From NCBI GenBank assembly GCA_900762245.1, contig CAAFFR010000003.1, positions 1-16,221 of the forward strand: a DNA stretch of 16,221 bases, given 5' to 3'. Positions 10,973-16,136 of the stretch are shown one piece after another; the stretch's first letter is position 1; the number at the start of each line of letters is the position of its first letter. The translations under genes and the position numbers were made by a program. The notes below the pieces were generated by a model that worked only from the letters and a program-made list of their open reading frames with translations, searched no databases and was not told where the DNA came from. The DNA comes from an uncultured Oscillospiraceae bacterium (GTDB lineage Bacteria > Bacillota_A > Clostridia > Oscillospirales > Oscillospiraceae).

Positions 10973-10991
10973 GTTGTATATGGGAGGAAAA

Positions 10992-11090
10992 ATGAAAGAG
11001 CAAATTCAATTATCAGATCACTTCACATATGGAAGGTTGATCCGCTTTACCTTGCCGTCCATTGGCATGATGATTTTCATGTCCATTTAT
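10992..11090 (+). pseudogene. MATE family efflux transporter, 33-codon N-terminal remnant
   Basis: GGGAGG precedes ATG, and the protein runs M-K-E-Q-I-Q-L-S-D-H-F-T-Y-G-R-L-I-R-F-T-L-P-S-I-G then M-M-I-F-M-S-I-Y. This is the usual start of Clostridial MATE multidrug exporters up to the middle of the first membrane helix. After Y33, near 11091, the sequence changes to KLVRQIFERMKAV and polar residues with no membrane character, so the gene is cut by foreign sequence. A full MATE has about 450 residues and 12 helices. The frame stays open to 11309, giving a chimeric ORF that should not be functional. Confidence 0.8.
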
Positions 11091-11134
11091 AAGCTGGTGC
11101 GCCAGATCTTTGAACGGATGAAGGCTGTTCCTAA

Positions 11135-11557
11135 AGCGAGATCGTCAATGTCCGTTACAAGGAAAAGATGGACGAGCGGCGGGCGCTACTCCGCAGCATC
11201 CGGGCCGACTACACAAAGTCGGCGGGTGAGCTTGAAATGCTCAGGGCAGAGGTTATCAAATCTCTGCGTGGGGAAAGCGCTTTTTCCCAATCGCTGCTTG
11301 GCTCTCTAATTGCTGATGCTGAGACAAAATGTCTCGAAGTTCAGCAGCAGCTTGAGGCAGCACAAGCGGCCTATGATAAGGGACAGGCAGTCCTGGCATC
11401 CTTGAACGCCCAGTATGACGATATTATTTCGTGGGCTGATATGTACGATACCGCAAGTATCGAAGCCAAGAAGATGATTGTTAACTGCCTTATCAAGCGG
11501 GTGGATGTCTACCGGGACTACAAGCTGCACATCGACGTCAACATCGACTTTGAGTAG
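11135..11557 (+). pseudogene. Large serine recombinase, C-terminal remnant
   Basis: The frame opens after a TAA at 11132 and reads about 140 codons with K-E-K-M-D-E-R-R, a long helical coiled-coil stretch (LEVQQQLEAAQAAYDK), and the ending SIEAKKMIVNCLIKRVDVYR. That ending matches the C-terminus of TnpX/resolvase-type large serine recombinases of Clostridial mobile elements. The catalytic N-terminal resolvase domain and the recombinase domain are missing. A short preceding stretch in another frame (VRQIFERMKAV, 11097-11129) may be another piece of the same gene, which would imply an internal deletion. No start codon with a ribosome site is present. It marks an old insertion into the MATE gene. 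Confidence 0.75.
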
Positions 11558-11594
11558 TTTAGCATGGGACTTGATATTGTTTGGATTGCGGCAT

Positions 11595-11624
11595 AAAAAA
11601 TACTCACTTTCCAAGGAAAGTGAG
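11595..11624 (-). terminator. Terminator downstream of the tRNA-Ala 3' half
   Basis: CTCACTTTC and GAAAGTGAG pair (11603-11624), with a T run on the minus strand (11595-11600). A further run of ten T lies between it and the tRNA 3' end. It fits a native tRNA terminator, read on the minus strand. Confidence 0.65.
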
Positions 11625-11651
11625 CAAAAAAAAAATTACTTAGTGTACCCA

Positions 11652-11696
11652 TGGTGGAGATAAGCGGGATCGAACCGCTGACCTCTTGAATGCCAT
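11652..11696 (-). tRNA. tRNA-Ala (GGC) 3' half: integration scar (att site)
   Basis: Read on the minus strand it starts with the anticodon loop ATGGCAT (anticodon GGC), then the 3' anticodon stem TCAAG, the variable loop, the T arm AGCGG-TTCGATC-CCGCT, acceptor strand TATCTCC and encoded ACCA. These 45 bases equal tRNA positions 32-76. The 5' half is absent: the sequence before the loop does not pair with TCAAG. This is not a functional tRNA. It is what remains at one end when an element integrates into the 3' part of a tRNA gene and carries a copy of that part. Confidence 0.85.
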
Positions 11697-11729
11697 GGCC
11701 TCCCTGGTGTATACTAATGAATATAATCC

Positions 11730-11756
11730 GTCCAATTCGTCCAAATAGTCCATTTT
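11730..11756 (+). repeat. Three tandem 9-bp repeats next to the att site
   Basis: GTCCAATTC, GTCCAAATA and GTCCATTTT follow head to tail, sharing GTCCA at a strict 9-bp period. Position and form suggest binding sites for an integrase arm domain or an excisionase. Confidence 0.6.
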
Positions 11757-11806
11757 AATTGCATAAAAATCCAATATGTGTCAGCTGGTGCATAATGTTT
11801 CGTCGT

Positions 11807-11830
11807 CATTCTGGTATGCATTCTGGTATG
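11807..11830 (+). repeat. Tandem 12-bp direct repeat upstream of the Fic-like gene
   Basis: CATTCTGGTATG occurs twice back to back. Related CTGGTGCATA (11785) and CTGGTGTATA (11704) make four CTGGT-type sites in 120 bases. They may bind the island's recombinase or the HTH domain of the Fic-like protein. Confidence 0.6.
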
Positions 11831-11917
11831 AAAAGTTTCGCACTCTCAAGTGTTTCGCAGCCTTCATTCCAGAGAAACCTACCAGCACAAATGAACCGCT
11901 GAAAGGAAAAGATTATT

Positions 11918-12856
11918 ATGCAGTACATCTCAACAAAAGAAGCGTCTGAAAACTGGAAAGTTACAGAACAGCTGATCCGCCGCTATTGCAGACAGGAACG
12001 CATACCTGGTGCAATCCAAAAAGATGGCGCGTGGCTGATTCCTGCAAAAGCAAAGAAACCCAGTCGAACGGAATCTACTGAACCTGAAGAAGAAAAATTG
12101 CCGCCTCTGGCGCGAACCCTTATCCGTCAAAAAAAGAAGAAAAACTTCCATGGTCTGTATGACTATGTTCAGACGGATTTCACCTACAGCTCCTGCCGGA
12201 TGGCCAGCAACCGTCTGACCCGTGGGCAGGTGGAAACCATCTTCAAGAAAGGAAAAGTGTCTGTCTCCTTTGAACCCATGAAGGTTTCGGACCTTGTGGA
12301 AGTCCTGAACCATTGCGTCTGTGTGGACTATATTCTGGACCACATCGAGGAACCGCTGTCCACCAAATTTATTAAGAATCTCCATTACCAACTTACCTTC
12401 GGCACTGTGGATGAGCGCAAAAAGAAAGTCACTCCGGGCCAGTTCCGTACCAAGAATTCTCAGCGAAAAGAAAGCTTCATTCTCCCCTCTGACTGTGTCA
12501 GCGACAAGCTGAAACTGCTGACTGCACGGTATGAATCCCTGGAAGAAGTGGATCGCCGGGATATTCTGGACTTCCATGTACGCTTTGTGAGGATCTTCCC
12601 CTTCGAAGATTACAACGGTCGAGTCGGTCGGCTGATCATGTTCAAAGAATGTCTGCGGCATGATGTGATGCCCTTCATTCTGGATGATAAGCGCCGGACA
12701 CGCTATTTGGAAGGCCTCCGGGAATGGGACAATGACAGCAGCATTCTGGCTGAAGTTGTGATGGAAGCTCAGAGCCGCTTCGATGCCCAGATCCAGCTGC
12801 AGAAGCTAGCCGAACACCGGCAGAACTTCCTGCCAGTTGGATTCATGGAGGATTGA
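11918..12856 (+). CDS. Fic-fold protein with N-terminal HTH and degenerate active site
   Basis: A 312-residue protein. Residues 1-50 look like an excisionase/MerR-type HTH (YISTKEASENWKVTEQLIRR, then IPGAIQKDGAWLIPAKAKKP). A charged linker (50-75) leads to a Fic domain (about 80-285). Fic enzymes transfer AMP or similar groups to target hydroxyls using HxFx(D/E)GNGRxxR. Here that loop is F227-P-F229-E-D231-Y232-N-G-R235-V-G-R238: the catalytic histidine is phenylalanine and the first loop glycine is tyrosine. The auto-inhibitory motif, normally (S/T)xxxE(G/N), appears as SSCRMA96SN with glutamate replaced. Catalysis by the standard route is unlikely; it may be a regulator or binding protein. 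ATG follows AAAGGAAAAG. TnpV starts three bases after the stop, so the genes form an operon. Confidence 0.88.
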   Translation: MQYISTKEASENWKVTEQLIRRYCRQERIPGAIQKDGAWLIPAKAKKPSRTESTEPEEEKLPPLARTLIRQKKKKNFHGLYDYVQTDFTYSSCRMASNRLTRGQVETIFKKGKVSVSFEPMKVSDLVEVLNHCVCVDYILDHIEEPLSTKFIKNLHYQLTFGTVDERKKKVTPGQFRTKNSQRKESFILPSDCVSDKLKLLTARYESLEEVDRRDILDFHVRFVRIFPFEDYNGRVGRLIMFKECLRHDVMPFILDDKRRTRYLEGLREWDNDSSILAEVVMEAQSRFDAQIQLQKLAEHRQNFLPVGFMED

Positions 12857-12858
12857 TT

Positions 12859-13206
12859 ATGAAACTGGAATATATCCGAAACGGAGACTACTACATTCCC
12901 AATCTGACGATCCAGAAAGAAGAACGCAGCATCGGCAAATGGGGCCGAATGCACCGGGAATTTCTGCGGGAGCACCATCCCATCCAGTTCAGCCAGCTGG
13001 TGCTGTCTGATACCCTCTTTACTTACCTCGCCGACCTGAATGAACAGGCACAGCAACGCATGGAAACCCTGATCTCCCAAATGCAGGTCGAAGAGGGTGT
13101 CACGGAGGACTTAAAAGCTGCTGATCCCATGGTCTGGACGCAGCGCATGAACAATATCCGCGCCAGGGCCGAAGAGATCGTCCGAGAGGAGCTGATCTTC
13201 GTATGA
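12859..13206 (+). CDS. tnpV: TnpV family protein (transposon-encoded)
   Basis: A 115-residue protein of the TnpV family (PF14198), found on Clostridial conjugative and mobilisable elements. The family pattern is visible: G-D-Y-Y-I-P-N-L near the start, G-K-W-G-R-M-H-R-E-F-L in the middle, Y-L-A-D-L-N-E-Q-A-Q-Q-R, and the highly typical W-T-Q-R-M-N-N-I-R-A-R-A-E-E-I-V near the C-terminus. In Tn4451-like elements TnpV has been compared to excisionases, but its function is not settled. ATG at 12859 lies seven bases after GGAGG, which is inside the end of the Fic-like gene. Its stop overlaps the next start (ATGA), so translation is coupled through three genes. A TTG at 12853 also in frame is less well placed. 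Confidence 0.9.
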   Translation: MKLEYIRNGDYYIPNLTIQKEERSIGKWGRMHREFLREHHPIQFSQLVLSDTLFTYLADLNEQAQQRMETLISQMQVEEGVTEDLKAADPMVWTQRMNNIRARAEEIVREELIFV

Positions 13207-13511
13207 ACATCACCGAGTTCATCACGCGGCTAAAGGCTTATGTGGAAGCAACCACACCCCGATCGGAAGATCTCACCCCGGAGTCCCTTTTAGAAATGCT
13301 GTTCAATGTCTACACAGAGTTCAACGGATTTGATGACCAAGTCATCCAGGAGGACTTTAATAACCTCTACACAGCTATGAACGGCAAAACTCTCCGGGAA
13401 ATGGACCAGATCATCTACCCGGTCTGTACCCTCTGCCGTGACCATGAAAAGACGGGATTTGAGGAAGGTATTAAGGTCGGTATCCGACTGGCTCAGGAAC
13501 TGTCTAATTAA
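13203..13511 (+). CDS. Hypothetical 102-aa acidic protein coupled to TnpV
   Basis: Not assigned to a named family. The start overlaps the TnpV stop by four bases (ATGA); GAGGAG lies about eleven bases upstream. The protein is acidic and predicted helical, without signal peptide or membrane segment. Its C-terminal half has Y-P-V-C-T-L-C-R-D-H-E-K-T-G-F-E-E-G, ending G-I-R-L-A-Q-E-L; this ExxGFxEGxxxGxRL pattern recurs in small proteins of Firmicute mobile elements. The C-x2-C is too isolated for a zinc site by itself. The coupling suggests a joint role with TnpV or the Fic-like protein. A palindrome follows at 13524. Confidence 0.8.
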   Translation: MNITEFITRLKAYVEATTPRSEDLTPESLLEMLFNVYTEFNGFDDQVIQEDFNNLYTAMNGKTLREMDQIIYPVCTLCRDHEKTGFEEGIKVGIRLAQELSN

Positions 13512-13746: not shown

Positions 13747-14949
13747 ATGATATGTCAATTCTCTTTTCAGAACTTCAGATCCTATAAGAATGAAACTGTA
13801 TTTGATATGCAGGCTACATCCGCTCCGGAAATGTCCGGAAGTCTGATTGCTGCGGAAGGTGGCAGCCCTCTTTTGCCTATCAGTGTTGTATATGGTCCCA
13901 ATGGCGGAGGTAAGTCCAATCTGATCAAGGCTTTTTCTGCACTGATTTCCATGGTTGTGCGCCCGATCCACGAACTGAAAAAGAACCAGAATCCCATTAT
14001 TATTCAGTATCATTCTTCCTGTATTCCCTTCGCGTTTGATGAAGATTCCGAGAACAATGCAACTGAGTTCTTACTGTACTTCCGAACTCGAAGCCACGAA
14101 TACCAGTATTTTATCTCCGTACTTCGGGATACAGTAATTTCTGAGAGCCTTCACTTTAAGCCCATTGGCGGTAGAATGTCCAAGCTGTTTGAGCGGGAAG
14201 ACGGAAAGATCACCCTCGGTGCAAAGATCCGCAAGGCTGGCGTAAACACGGACATCAACGAAAAGATGCCGTATCTTTCCTTCCTCGCCATCAATCACAA
14301 TTTTCCTGCTATTGTCGAAGCGCAGCGCTGGTTTGAATCTTGTGTGATTTTGAATTACGCAAATCCCAGTACCGAGCAGATGTTGCTTCTGTCCGAGGAC
14401 CCCGTATTTAAGAGCCACATTATTCAGCTGTTGAACGATATGGGCATCGATGTAACCAGCTACCGTTTCGATGAACAGTTGGGGCGCTTTTTCCTGACAC
14501 ATAAGATCCACGACAAGGATTATGAGCTGGATCTGGGAAATGAGTCGGAAGGCACGCAAAAGCTGTTTTCTGTACTTCCTATTGTCCTGCTTGCTCTGGC
14601 TCAGGGACGTCCTCTGCTGATTGACGAGCTGGACTCCAAGCTTCATCCCAAGCTGCTGAAGTATATTATTTCTCTGTTTAAGAACCCGGCTGTCAACCGT
14701 TATGGTGCTCAGCTTATTTTCTCCTCCCACGACATGACCACCATGCGCAATGATGTGTTCCGACGGGATGAAATCTGGTTCGCTTCTCTGACCGAAAACA
14801 GAGACAGCGAGATCTACTCTCTCTATGAAATCCGCCGTGAAGGTGGGCAGCGAATCAACAATGACGCAGCTTATAACATCCAGTATATGGCCGGACGGTA
14901 TGGTGCCGATCCCTATCTGCGTGCAATGCTTGACTGGGAGGCGTTATAA
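13747..14949 (+). CDS. AAA family ATPase, RloA/AbiLi-like (SMC/Rad50-type head)
   Basis: A 400-residue ATPase of the AAA_15/AAA_21 type, with an ABC/SMC-like nucleotide fold. Strand 1 begins F-S-F-Q-N-F-R-S-Y. Walker A is G50-P-N-G-G-G-K56-S57-N, where the fifth motif residue is glycine instead of the more common alanine. A middle region (about 75-260) without known motifs is probably the specificity or helical insert. The ABC-like signature is N-E-S267-E-G-T-Q. Walker B is L-L-I-D293-E294-L-D and the switch histidine is H328 in FSSH328D. AGGAGGG precedes ATG 13747. Stop and next start overlap (TAATG). In AbiL- and PARIS-type phage defence such an ATPase senses infection and releases or activates its TOPRIM-like partner; that role is inferred here from the pairing. 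Confidence 0.9.
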   Translation: MICQFSFQNFRSYKNETVFDMQATSAPEMSGSLIAAEGGSPLLPISVVYGPNGGGKSNLIKAFSALISMVVRPIHELKKNQNPIIIQYHSSCIPFAFDEDSENNATEFLLYFRTRSHEYQYFISVLRDTVISESLHFKPIGGRMSKLFEREDGKITLGAKIRKAGVNTDINEKMPYLSFLAINHNFPAIVEAQRWFESCVILNYANPSTEQMLLLSEDPVFKSHIIQLLNDMGIDVTSYRFDEQLGRFFLTHKIHDKDYELDLGNESEGTQKLFSVLPIVLLALAQGRPLLIDELDSKLHPKLLKYIISLFKNPAVNRYGAQLIFSSHDMTTMRNDVFRRDEIWFASLTENRDSEIYSLYEIRREGGQRINNDAAYNIQYMAGRYGADPYLRAMLDWEAL

Positions 14950-15617
14950 TGAGCCTGAAACCTGTCAAGAAAAGTGACCGAGGCAAATCGTGGATGCAAC
15001 CCCGGCGGGATAGCAAGCGAACAATTCAGCCGGAATATCATCTGATTATTACCGAAGGGACCAAAACAGAACCCCTGTACTTTGAAGCCCTGAAGGAGCG
15101 TATCAACGCAAGATTCCCCAATCGCATCCACATGGACATCGTAGGTAAAGGCAAAAGTGCAGAATTTCTCTTTAACGAAGCTGTTGAACGCGTCAGAAAT
15201 AACCCCAATGGATACAGCCATGTATGGCTGGTATATGACACAGACGATTTTCCAAAGGATCAAATTGATAACACCGCTTTCCGCTGTAAACAGATCAGTA
15301 CCGCCCAGACGAAGTATCATGCGCTGTGGTCCAACCAGTGTATTGAGCTCTGGTTCCTATTGCACTTCAGTTATCTTCACTCGGACATTGACCGGAAAGC
15401 ATATGCAGAAAAACTCACAGAGCATTTATTACGGATCAAGAAAAGTGTATATCAGAAGAATCGAAAAGATATCTTCGAAGTTCTTCTGCCCTACGTAGAC
15501 ACCGCCATTCAAAATGCACATAAGCTGGCAAAAGAAAATGAGGGTAAGTCGCCATCGCAATCCAAGCCAGGAACTCAAGTGTACGAGTTGCTTGAAGCAC
15601 TACGTATGTACTTTTAA
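14949..15617 (+). CDS. RloB family protein, AbiLii-like putative nuclease (TOPRIM-like)
   Basis: A 222-residue protein of the RloB family (PF13707). Conserved features: a basic start (KKSDRGKSWMQPRR); I-I-T-E36-G-T-K-T-E-P-L-Y-F, resembling the TOPRIM glutamate motif; W-L-V-Y-D97-T-D99-D100, resembling the TOPRIM D-x-D; and S-N-Q-C-I-E133-L-W-F-L-L-H-F, the strongest RloB signature. These acidic residues would hold a metal for nucleic acid cleavage, by analogy with TOPRIM nucleases. Its ATG shares one base with the ATPase stop, with GGGAGG seven bases upstream, so the two products are made together. The likely role is the effector of an abortive-infection defence pair. A terminator follows at 15646. 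Confidence 0.88.
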   Translation: MSLKPVKKSDRGKSWMQPRRDSKRTIQPEYHLIITEGTKTEPLYFEALKERINARFPNRIHMDIVGKGKSAEFLFNEAVERVRNNPNGYSHVWLVYDTDDFPKDQIDNTAFRCKQISTAQTKYHALWSNQCIELWFLLHFSYLHSDIDRKAYAEKLTEHLLRIKKSVYQKNRKDIFEVLLPYVDTAIQNAHKLAKENEGKSPSQSKPGTQVYELLEALRMYF

Positions 15618-15645
15618 TTGTGTCGCTAAAAAACCAATATTACAA

Positions 15646-15692
15646 TTTTAATCCCGGATTTGAAAAGACTCTTTTTAAATCCGGGATTAAAA
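15646..15692. terminator. Terminator of the ATPase/RloB operon
   Basis: TTTTAATCCCGGATTT (15646-15661) pairs perfectly with 15677-15692. The base of the stem supplies A and T runs for both strands. Confidence 0.75.
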
Positions 15693-15748
15693 ATATTTAA
15701 TTGTCATTTTAGGTAAGGACCCAAACTGGACGAGTTATCTATTGGAAA

Positions 15749-15778: not shown

Positions 15779-16021
15779 TTATTTGATCTCTTGTTCCAAA
15801 TCGTCGAATAACTCGCTGTCAAAGAACTCTCTGATACTGATTTCCAATCCATCACAAAGCTTCTTCAGAGAAACCACACCGGGATTCTTGCTTTTCTCAT
15901 TCAGCATGCTGTAGATCGTAGATGGAGATACTCCAGATACTGTTCCCAATGCATTGACAGCCATGTTCCGTTCTTCGCACAGCTCAAGAATGCGCTTTGC
16001 TACAGCTTCCTTTGTATTCAA
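15779..16021 (-). CDS. Small XRE family transcriptional regulator
   Basis: An 80-residue single-domain DNA-binding protein. The helix-turn-helix spans about residues 8-66 (ILELCEERNMAVNALGTVSGVSPSTIY, with the recognition helix SPSTIYSML), followed by the usual LKKLCDGLEISIREFF and an acidic tail. The start chosen is TTG at 16021: AAGGAGG lies nine bases upstream, and M-N-T-K-E-A-V-A-K-R is the typical start of these proteins. The longer frame to 16093 reads through this ribosome site and promoter and is rejected. It lies on the strand opposite the defence genes, as repressors of mobile elements often do, and probably controls itself and the divergent gene beginning near 16137. Confidence 0.9.
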   Translation of the reverse strand: MNTKEAVAKRILELCEERNMAVNALGTVSGVSPSTIYSMLNEKSKNPGVVSLKKLCDGLEISIREFFDSELFDDLEQEIK

Positions 16022-16038
16022 TTCGCATCCCCTCCTTG

Positions 16039-16048
16039 CGATATATCG
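16039..16048. promoter_or_regulatory. Candidate operator palindrome next to the XRE ribosome site
   Basis: CGATATATCG is a perfect 10-bp palindrome ending two bases upstream of AAGGAGG. Binding there would block transcription or cover the leader, as expected for autoregulation by a small XRE repressor. Inferred from position and symmetry only. Confidence 0.4.
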
Positions 16049-16136
16049 TGATCTTAGGGAACCTCTGAATAAATAAGCTTCATTCTGTTCCAAATGGTAA
16101 AAATGACCGATTTTTGGTTTAGTTAAGGAAATTTAA

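What the first reader, a model, noticed from the sequence alone, without database searches (positions are those of the whole stretch)
11918..13511. HTH-Fic pseudoenzyme, TnpV and a 102-aa protein in one coupled operon
The Fic loop has F for the catalytic H (227) and Y for the first G (232), and the inhibitory E is A96. The DNA-binding N-terminus is kept and the next two genes are coupled by overlap or a 3-base gap. A Fic fold may have been reused as a regulator or excision factor, or as a toxin with different chemistry.
Basis: partly seen in the sequence, partly recalled or inferred. Interest (0 to 1): 0.75.

Follow-up and report, generated by a model that had tools for sequence, protein, structure and literature searches.

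The report
Dead Fic regulator at tRNA-Ala island
A DNA-binding protein with a degenerate Fic (AMP-transferring) domain sits just inside the attachment site of islands inserted in an alanine tRNA gene of gut bacteria, which suggests that an enzyme fold was reused to control a mobile element that carries phage-defence genes.

Summary
In detail: an HTH-Fic gene (F for the catalytic His, Y for the first Gly, A for the inhibitory Glu), TnpV and a 102-aa gene are tightly coupled. It is not a decayed single copy. The 120 closest homologues listed all have F. Of 242 collected relatives lacking the inhibitory Glu, 209 lack the His (F 121, R 86, A 1, V 1); the rest of the Fic loop is nearly invariant and dN/dS is about 0.07-0.13. 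On the tree the Glu was lost once; the His then changed repeatedly (parsimony 15).

An empty site in another genome matches the window (90% over 616 columns) up to the inner end of that fragment. Two elements are bounded on one contig: fic at one end, tyrosine integrase and intact tRNA-Ala at the other. Mostly locus-specific direct repeats lie between att and fic.

Best reading: a non-AMPylating HTH-Fic regulator acting at att and its own promoter, perhaps the excision directionality factor. TnpV and the 102-aa gene are not obligatory. No binding or excision was shown.

The parts
11084..11651 (.). Flank outside the element: serine-recombinase C-terminal remnant (ORF 11168-11557; named by eye, no Pfam hit) lying 3' of the tRNA
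   Evidence: blastn: window 11084-11696 matches G002:C87 (L062 7646-7033) at 90.3% over 616 columns; there the same DNA runs into an intact tRNA-Ala(GGC)
11652..11696 (-). 45-bp 3' part of tRNA-Ala(GGC): att core / insertion boundary (tRNA 3' end at 11652; its 5' side faces fic)
   Evidence: identical 45 bp in intact tRNA-Ala genes of other genomes; similarity to the empty site stops at 11696
11697..11917 (.). 221-bp interval between att core and fic: candidate attP arm and promoter with direct repeats
   Evidence: its first 140 nt are 69-70% identical to L031-L033, against 58-60% for the gene; no such excess towards L001 and most of L034-L039; repeats
11807..11828 (+). CATTCTGGTA twice, period 12
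   Evidence: 10 of 10 identical, p=0.003 against shuffles
11831..11859 (+). AAAAGTTTCGCA / AAGTGTTTCGCA, period 17
   Evidence: 10 of 12 identical, p=0.055 alone; the class is stronger in other loci
11918..12856 (+). HTH-Fic pseudoenzyme (HTH about aa 1-50, Fic fold about aa 62-301)
12203..12205 (+). codon for A96, in place of the inhibitory Glu
12596..12598 (+). codon for F227, in place of the catalytic His
12611..12613 (+). codon for Y232, in place of the first Gly
12859..13206 (+). TnpV (alternative TTG start at 12853)
   Evidence: PF14198 E 5.5e-44; start codons
13203..13511 (+). 102-aa protein, no assigned family
   Evidence: 588 homologues at E<=0.001; predicted all-helical at low confidence, mean pLDDT 61.6
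13747..14949 (+). AbiLi-like ATPase (cargo)
   Evidence: PADLOC AbiLi E 4.8e-76
14949..15617 (+). AbiLii/RloB-like protein (cargo)
   Evidence: PF13707 E 1.4e-41; PADLOC AbiLii E 6.4e-26
15779..16093 (-). XRE-type regulator, opposite strand
   Evidence: PF13443 E 2.1e-8; 90.5% and 84.4% identical relatives downstream of the Fic gene in L030 and L039

Best explanation
The window shows the tRNA-distal end of an integrative element inserted in tRNA-Ala(GGC). Its first gene encodes an HTH protein whose C-terminal Fic domain keeps the fold and most phosphate-binding residues but has lost inhibitory Glu and catalytic His. I propose that it binds the repeats between att and its start codon, controls its own operon and, with a tyrosine integrase at the other end of the element, sets the direction of recombination (an RDF/excisionase role). 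The Fic domain would serve as a dimerising and possibly nucleotide-sensing part that transfers no AMP. Shown by sequence: insertion boundary, gene position, repeats, residue losses, purifying selection. Inferred: DNA binding at these repeats, autoregulation, RDF function, nucleotide sensing, and the window's own integrase (its end of the element is not held). About 0.5 for a regulator acting on att and/or its own promoter; about 0.3 for the RDF part alone.
For: Of 255 aligned relatives, 13 have E96 and all 13 have H227/G232; 242 lack E96, and of these 209 lack H227, while N233, G234, R235, G237 and R238 are present in 255 of 255. Tree of 102 rows: one split between rows with and without E96 (SH-aLRT 99), 15 H/non-H changes by parsimony, 9 at G232. 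dN/dS about 0.07-0.13. The tRNA-Ala core lies 191-221 bp before the start in 14 of 14 loci; 0 of 11 canonical loci tested (of 16 held) have it in that orientation. Empty site G002:C87. Both ends on one contig in G116 (26.4 kb) and G300 (8.5 kb), with an integrase next to intact tRNA-Ala; integrases of G116, G1062, G151 and G300 are 65-75% identical. Repeats of period 12 (z 7.3) and 19 (z 11.4) over 13 loci; those of period 17-20 are more alike within a locus than between loci (permutation p 0.0004). An HMM of the HTH finds, besides fic itself, nothing in the G116 element and only a weak match (E 0.07) in the G300 element. Known precedent: phage 186 Apl is both excisionase and regulator and binds direct repeats (PMC7498355, abstract and outline).
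Against: No binding, excision or expression was measured. The repeats may be arm sites of the integrase. 33 of 242 Glu-less proteins keep His, so activity in some is possible. In samples of 394 genomes drawn the same way, the integrase family of G1062 was found (E<=1e-90) in 2 and the Fic (E<=1e-68) in 8, with no genome in common (at most 4 integrase candidates per genome were scored). G394 has a different integrase beside its tRNA-Ala; intact tRNA-Ala genes of G002 and G534 have none beside them. The interval between att and fic is more conserved than the gene in some pairs (window against L031-L033; L034 against L038) but not in others (window against L001, L034, L035, L038, L039). L036, L039 and L047 show no period 17-20 repeat and L001 a weak one. 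Canonical HTH-Fics carry the same kind of HTH without this att position. C or Y at position 232 might disturb nucleotide binding.
Confidence: 0.5

Rival explanations
1. A transcription regulator of the island's operons only; its place next to att merely reflects that it leads the operon at that end, and the repeats are its operators or the integrase's arm sites.
For: Repeats of period 17-20 lie about 66-87 bp before the start codon, where operators would be. An XRE gene is found downstream in several loci. The HTH is also present in canonical HTH-Fics away from att. The att-fic interval is not always better conserved than the gene.
Against: Position at the att core is fixed in 14 of 14 loci, and the period-12 repeats are about one helix turn apart, as in known RDF sites such as those of Apl (PMC7498355, abstract); neither fact is decisive.
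Confidence: 0.25
2. A toxin or phage-defence effector with altered or residual chemistry, restrained by the coupled small protein (TnpV, the 102-aa protein or DUF6061), kept as an addiction or defence module of the island.
For: PADLOC calls it a defence candidate (PDC-S04, E 3.3e-69). 8 of 12 loci have a coupled small gene. A degenerate Fic of Campylobacter fetus (Fic2) is toxic (PMC5651007, passages). SoFic has a small antitoxin gene downstream (PMC12249575, abstract).
Against: The His changed about 15 times on the tree, to F, R, A or V, unlike a catalytic residue under selection. 4 of 12 loci have no coupled small gene, and the small genes belong to different families.
Confidence: 0.15
3. 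A decayed Fic enzyme carried along without function.
For: Both catalytic and inhibitory residues are lost.
Against: Full length in the relatives listed, dN/dS about 0.07-0.13, invariant loop residues.
Confidence: 0.04

Closest known systems
Clostridioides difficile Fic 0569 (PDB 4x2c/4x2d/4x2e)
   Different: It has HPFQDGNGR, and the match starts after the window's HTH; no att association was looked for.
CbFic2 of Coxiella burnetii (PMC10628234, outline, abstract and passages seen)
   Same: A Fic protein with an HTH domain that binds DNA, with DNA-induced dimerisation.
   Different: C-terminal HTH, intact HPFDDGNGR and TSAIEG, active AMPylase/deAMPylase.
Degenerate Fic/Doc clades: Doc D2 with Gln for His, F3 without the last Arg (PMC4454073, section 6 and passages seen); C. 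fetus Fic2 (PMC5651007, passages seen)
   Same: Lineages that keep the fold while losing catalytic residues.
   Different: Different residues lost; no HTH, tRNA-Ala or att context in what I saw; Fic2 is toxic.
Recombination directionality factors Apl (PMC7498355) and RdfS (PMC11963761), abstracts and outlines seen
   Same: DNA-binding proteins that act at att and at promoters; Apl sites are direct repeats, RdfS is a winged HTH.
   Different: No Fic domain is mentioned in the abstracts; excision role shown by experiment.
TnpV of Tn4451-like elements (PMC3158075, passages seen)
   Same: The window's second gene is a TnpV; TnpV has been postulated to act in excision by likeness to lambda Xis.
   Different: Tn4451 and Tn6104 use large serine recombinases; the bounded elements here have tyrosine integrases.

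Membership tests
Fic AMP-transferase | Fic fold / PF02661 | tested here: met
Fic AMP-transferase | catalytic His of HxFx(D/E)GNGRxxR | tested here: not met
   F227; of 242 Glu-less rows 121 F, 86 R, 33 H, 1 A, 1 V
Fic AMP-transferase | first Gly of the motif | tested here: not met
   Y232; of all 255 rows C 132, G 77, Y 44, S 2
Fic AMP-transferase | AMP transfer in vitro | not testable with these tools
   no assay
Class II Fic (N-terminal inhibitory helix) | (S/T)xxxE(G/N) inhibitory Glu | tested here: not met
   A96 followed by S97; Glu absent in 242 of 255 rows
SoFic defence system | intact Fic motif together with a SoFic model match | tested here: not met
   SoFic E 2.2e-14, best stretch 122-243; PDC-S04 scores far better, E 3.3e-69; His absent
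Recombination directionality factor of a tyrosine integrase | excisionase-like HTH | tested here: inconclusive
   HTH_17 E 5.6e-4, below cut-off; PHROG excisionases E 8.9e-4 and 0.012
Recombination directionality factor of a tyrosine integrase | gene at the att site of an integrase-bearing element | tested here: met
   14 of 14 loci with att core 191-221 bp upstream; integrase at the other end on the same contig in G116 and G300; in the window itself the other end is not held
Recombination directionality factor of a tyrosine integrase | binds att and stimulates excision | not testable with these tools
   no assay
TnpV (second gene) | PF14198 over cut-off | tested here: met
   149.1 bits against a cut-off of 27
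AbiL (cargo) | AbiLi and AbiLii side by side | tested here: met
   E 4.8e-76 and 6.4e-26

The most novel reading that the evidence does not exclude
A Fic fold has been turned into the directionality factor of a family of tRNA-Ala(GGC) defence islands: loss of the inhibitory Glu left an ATP pocket that could bind nucleotide, loss of the His removed AMP transfer, and the HTH, matched to element-specific repeats in the attP arm, ties excision and expression of defence cargo to nucleotide state or to the coupled small protein.
Probability: 0.25. Interest if true: 0.82.

Novelty: new variant of a known kind. Interest (0 to 1): 0.62.

Why it matters
Fic domains are known mainly as AMP-, phosphate- or phosphocholine-transferring enzymes (recalled). 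A branch that discards the catalytic His while staying fixed to the attachment site of defence islands would show how an enzyme fold becomes a control element of mobile DNA. It also predicts something simple to test: which protein binds the repeats, and whether the island excises without it. Sources that name such proteins call them 'Fic family protein', and PADLOC lists the window's as a single-gene defence candidate; both labels may mislead.

Tried and rejected
Chance or sequencing error for F227/Y232/A96: rejected (120 of 120 listed closest homologues have F).

Trio as an obligatory unit: rejected. Downstream side held in 12 Glu-less loci: TnpV and 102-aa in window and L030; TnpV in L039; 102-aa in L001 and L035; DUF6061 in L031 and L038 (Pfam) and L032 (by likeness); none in L034, L036, L037 and L068.

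102-aa protein as a VbhA-like antitoxin supplying the lost inhibitory motif: the string TGFEEG in the window fits (S/T)xxxE(G/N), but the first position and the Glu vary (AGFVEG in L001, TGFVDG in L035). Not supported. Its structure model was too weak (pLDDT 61.6), so no fold search was made.

Occurrence in public phages and plasmids: relatives there are all below 60% identity. In IMG/VR a first scan found no relative; a second found three loci, with Glu and His intact. The one scan of genome contigs found two loci.

Integrase and Fic always together: not supported in the 394-genome samples. Of the two integrase hits, G137 lies beside tRNA-Ala and G183 near tRNA-Pro without the core.

att-fic interval always better conserved than the gene: my first figure (76-78% over 185 bp) included the core; without it the picture is mixed. 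Link between HTH residues and repeat sequence: looked at by eye, too few loci, left open.

Canonical controls: 16 canonical rows were held; 11 were tested for the core. L015 (short upstream side) and L003, L043, L044 and L045 were left out.

Prior art: the listings (titles and starts of abstracts) showed no paper tying a Fic protein to an att site or excision; only open-licence papers are held.

Not tested: other tRNA fragments near canonical HTH-Fics (only the tRNA-Ala core and intact tRNAs were sought); nucleotide docking (no model coordinates among the files).

Full report

A LASTING FAMILY, NOT A DEAD COPY. A search returned 7562 proteins at E<=0.001 among 7997 scored; the best 120 were listed, and 120 of 120 have F at the His position, with C (77), Y (41) or S (2) at the first Gly. 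A second search with nine more distant relatives listed 120 of 1781, 111 of them new. Of 255 rows aligned (window, 231 proteins, 23 loci), 13 have the inhibitory Glu, and all 13 have His and Gly. The other 242 have Ala (241) or Ser (1) there, and of these 121 have F, 86 R, 33 H, 1 A and 1 V at position 227. H220, P228, N233, G234, R235, G237 and R238 are in all 255; D231 is in 254. On a tree of 102 rows, built without the trait columns, all 86 Glu-less rows form one side of a branch with SH-aLRT 99; parsimony needs 15 H/non-H changes, 9 changes at G232 and 3 at position 96. The tree is a quick one, warns of long branches and has 35 open forks of 99, so the counts are approximate; a few H rows inside R groups may be reversals or sequencing errors. 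Pairwise dN/dS is about 0.07-0.13 in the pairs with usable dS (L031-L032 0.034/0.47; L031-L033 0.076/0.58; L032-L033 0.086/0.69; window-L030 0.181/1.41, 167 codons); three further pairs have dS above 2. In solved Fic proteins, removing the inhibitory Glu lets ATP bind in the competent mode (PMC3667792, abstract and passages seen). The order here, Glu lost once and then His repeatedly, fits a pocket kept for something other than AMP transfer; that step is inference.

THE ATTACHMENT SITE. A 45-bp piece of tRNA-Ala(GGC) lies at 11652-11696 on the minus strand. In 14 of 14 Glu-less loci whose upstream side is held (window plus L001, L002, L031-L039, L046, L047; L030 is cut by its contig end), the inner end of this core lies 191-221 bp before the fic start; L034, L035, L036, L038 and L046 have partly degenerate versions. 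L001 and L002 are near-identical and L031-L033 are close, so there are fewer independent cases than 14. Of 16 canonical HTH-Fic loci held, 11 were tested and 0 have it in this orientation; one (L017) lies 3' of an intact tRNA-Ala(GGC). The boundary is sharp: window 11084-11696 matches G002:C87 at 90.3% over 616 columns, and the match stops 45 bases from the 3' end of an intact tRNA-Ala(GGC) there. So the DNA right of 11696 is inserted, and fic is its first gene.

THE OTHER END. Two core copies in the same orientation flank 26.4 kb in G116 and 8.5 kb in G300; fic lies at one end, and a tyrosine integrase (388 aa in G116; a 168-aa remnant in G300) beside the intact tRNA-Ala at the other. In G1062 and G151 a tRNA-Ala with the same integrase family is on another contig than fic; the four integrases are 65-75% identical. 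Against a fixed pair: G394 has a different integrase by its tRNA-Ala; the tRNA-Ala genes of G002 and G534 have none nearby; G137 has the integrase family beside tRNA-Ala without a Fic hit in its samples; and in samples of 394 genomes of one order, drawn the same way, integrase (2) and Fic (8) hits share no genome. G026 has an integrase fragment on the far side of its core, and G1064 an open frame across and beyond its core that looks by eye like an integrase start; both may reflect tandem accretion.

REPEATS. Between core and fic, direct repeats of period 12 (mean best score 8.38 against 6.32 in shuffles, z 7.3) and 19 (8.15 against 6.07, z 11.4) stand out over 13 loci; periods 10, 11, 13, 18 and 22 also reach z 3.0-4.2. 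The window has CATTCTGGTA twice at period 12 (p 0.003). The second kind lies 66-87 bp before the start, with period 17-20 and at least 10 of 12 identical bases, in 9 of the 13 loci; singly it reaches p<=0.02 in 7, 0.055 in the window and 0.10 in L033. Its sequence differs between most loci but is alike within one (self score at least 11 of 12 in 6 of 12 loci, cross score so in 7 of 132 pairs; permutation p 0.0004). L036, L039 and L047 show no such repeat and L001 only a weak one. This is a pattern expected of sites for an element-specific DNA-binding protein: the HTH-Fic or the integrase. The first 140 nt of the interval are better conserved than the gene between the window and L031-L033 (69-70% against 58-60%) and between L034 and L038 (89% against 69%), but not between the window and most other loci.

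CARGO. After the fic operon come defence genes: AbiLi/AbiLii in the window. Of 8 cargo proteins that I picked from three elements, 8 matched PADLOC: type III restriction enzyme, two methylases, HKD+Snf2, PDC-S49 and AbiH in G116; PDC-S01 in G300; PDC-S31 in G151. G595 has a reverse transcriptase. An XRE gene on the other strand lies downstream in the window, L030 (90% identical) and L039 (84%), with weaker relatives in L001, L031 and L037. A YpsA/SLOG-like gene (PF06908 E 1.4e-4 in L031, below cut-off; elsewhere by likeness) stands nearby in L030, L031, L032, L037 and L038.

MECHANISM. In the circular form the core would lie between the end of int and the repeat-bearing interval before fic (inferred from the bounded elements). 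An HTH protein there could bend the arm for excision and repress its own promoter; Apl acts at att and at promoters, and RdfS binds attP and its own promoter (PMC7498355, PMC11963761, abstracts). In the G116 and G300 elements no other open frame matched the HTH model well (next best E 0.07 in G300; a weak match, E 0.0025, in the G1062 region is a frame overlapping the end of int and does not look like a gene). That leaves HTH-Fic as the best RDF candidate, though RDFs of other kinds would be missed. The Fic domain could dimerise the protein; CbFic2 shows DNA-induced dimerisation of an HTH-containing Fic (PMC10628234, passages). TnpV, postulated to be Xis-like in Tn4451 (PMC3158075, passages), is coupled in 3 of 12 loci and so cannot be the general factor.

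LIMITS. I rate a regulator acting on att or its own promoter at 0.5, and the RDF part at about 0.3.

Noticed in passing
window 13747-15617: AbiLi/AbiLii (ATPase plus RloB-like) pair, a known abortive-infection type, as cargo of the island.
   Followed up: partly
window 10980-11557: A MATE-transporter-like start (by eye) runs at about 11084 into the C-terminal remnant of a large serine recombinase (by eye): the scar of an older element beside tRNA-Ala; the remnant is shared with G002:C87.
   Followed up: partly
window 15626-15712: 43-nt inverted repeat, 79% complementary, with 1 nt between the arms, between AbiLii and the XRE gene; possibly a bidirectional terminator.
   Followed up: no
L044 1132-2022: Canonical HTH-Fic (Glu and His intact) on a viral contig, followed by an ORF that looks by eye like a tail-protein gene.
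   Followed up: no
L040 6689-8114: TnpV gene just upstream of a canonical HTH-Fic, so TnpV and HTH-Fic also meet outside the pseudoenzyme branch.
   Followed up: no
window 12683-12697 (Fic residues 256-260): DDKRR after the Fic loop is nearly invariant in the Glu-less branch and replaced in canonical relatives (such as IEDHIK in L041); a lineage-specific basic patch.
   Followed up: no
L069 4360-5604: A canonical HTH-Fic 3' of an intact tRNA-Ala(GGC), with no integrase seen by eye within 4 kb.
   Followed up: partly
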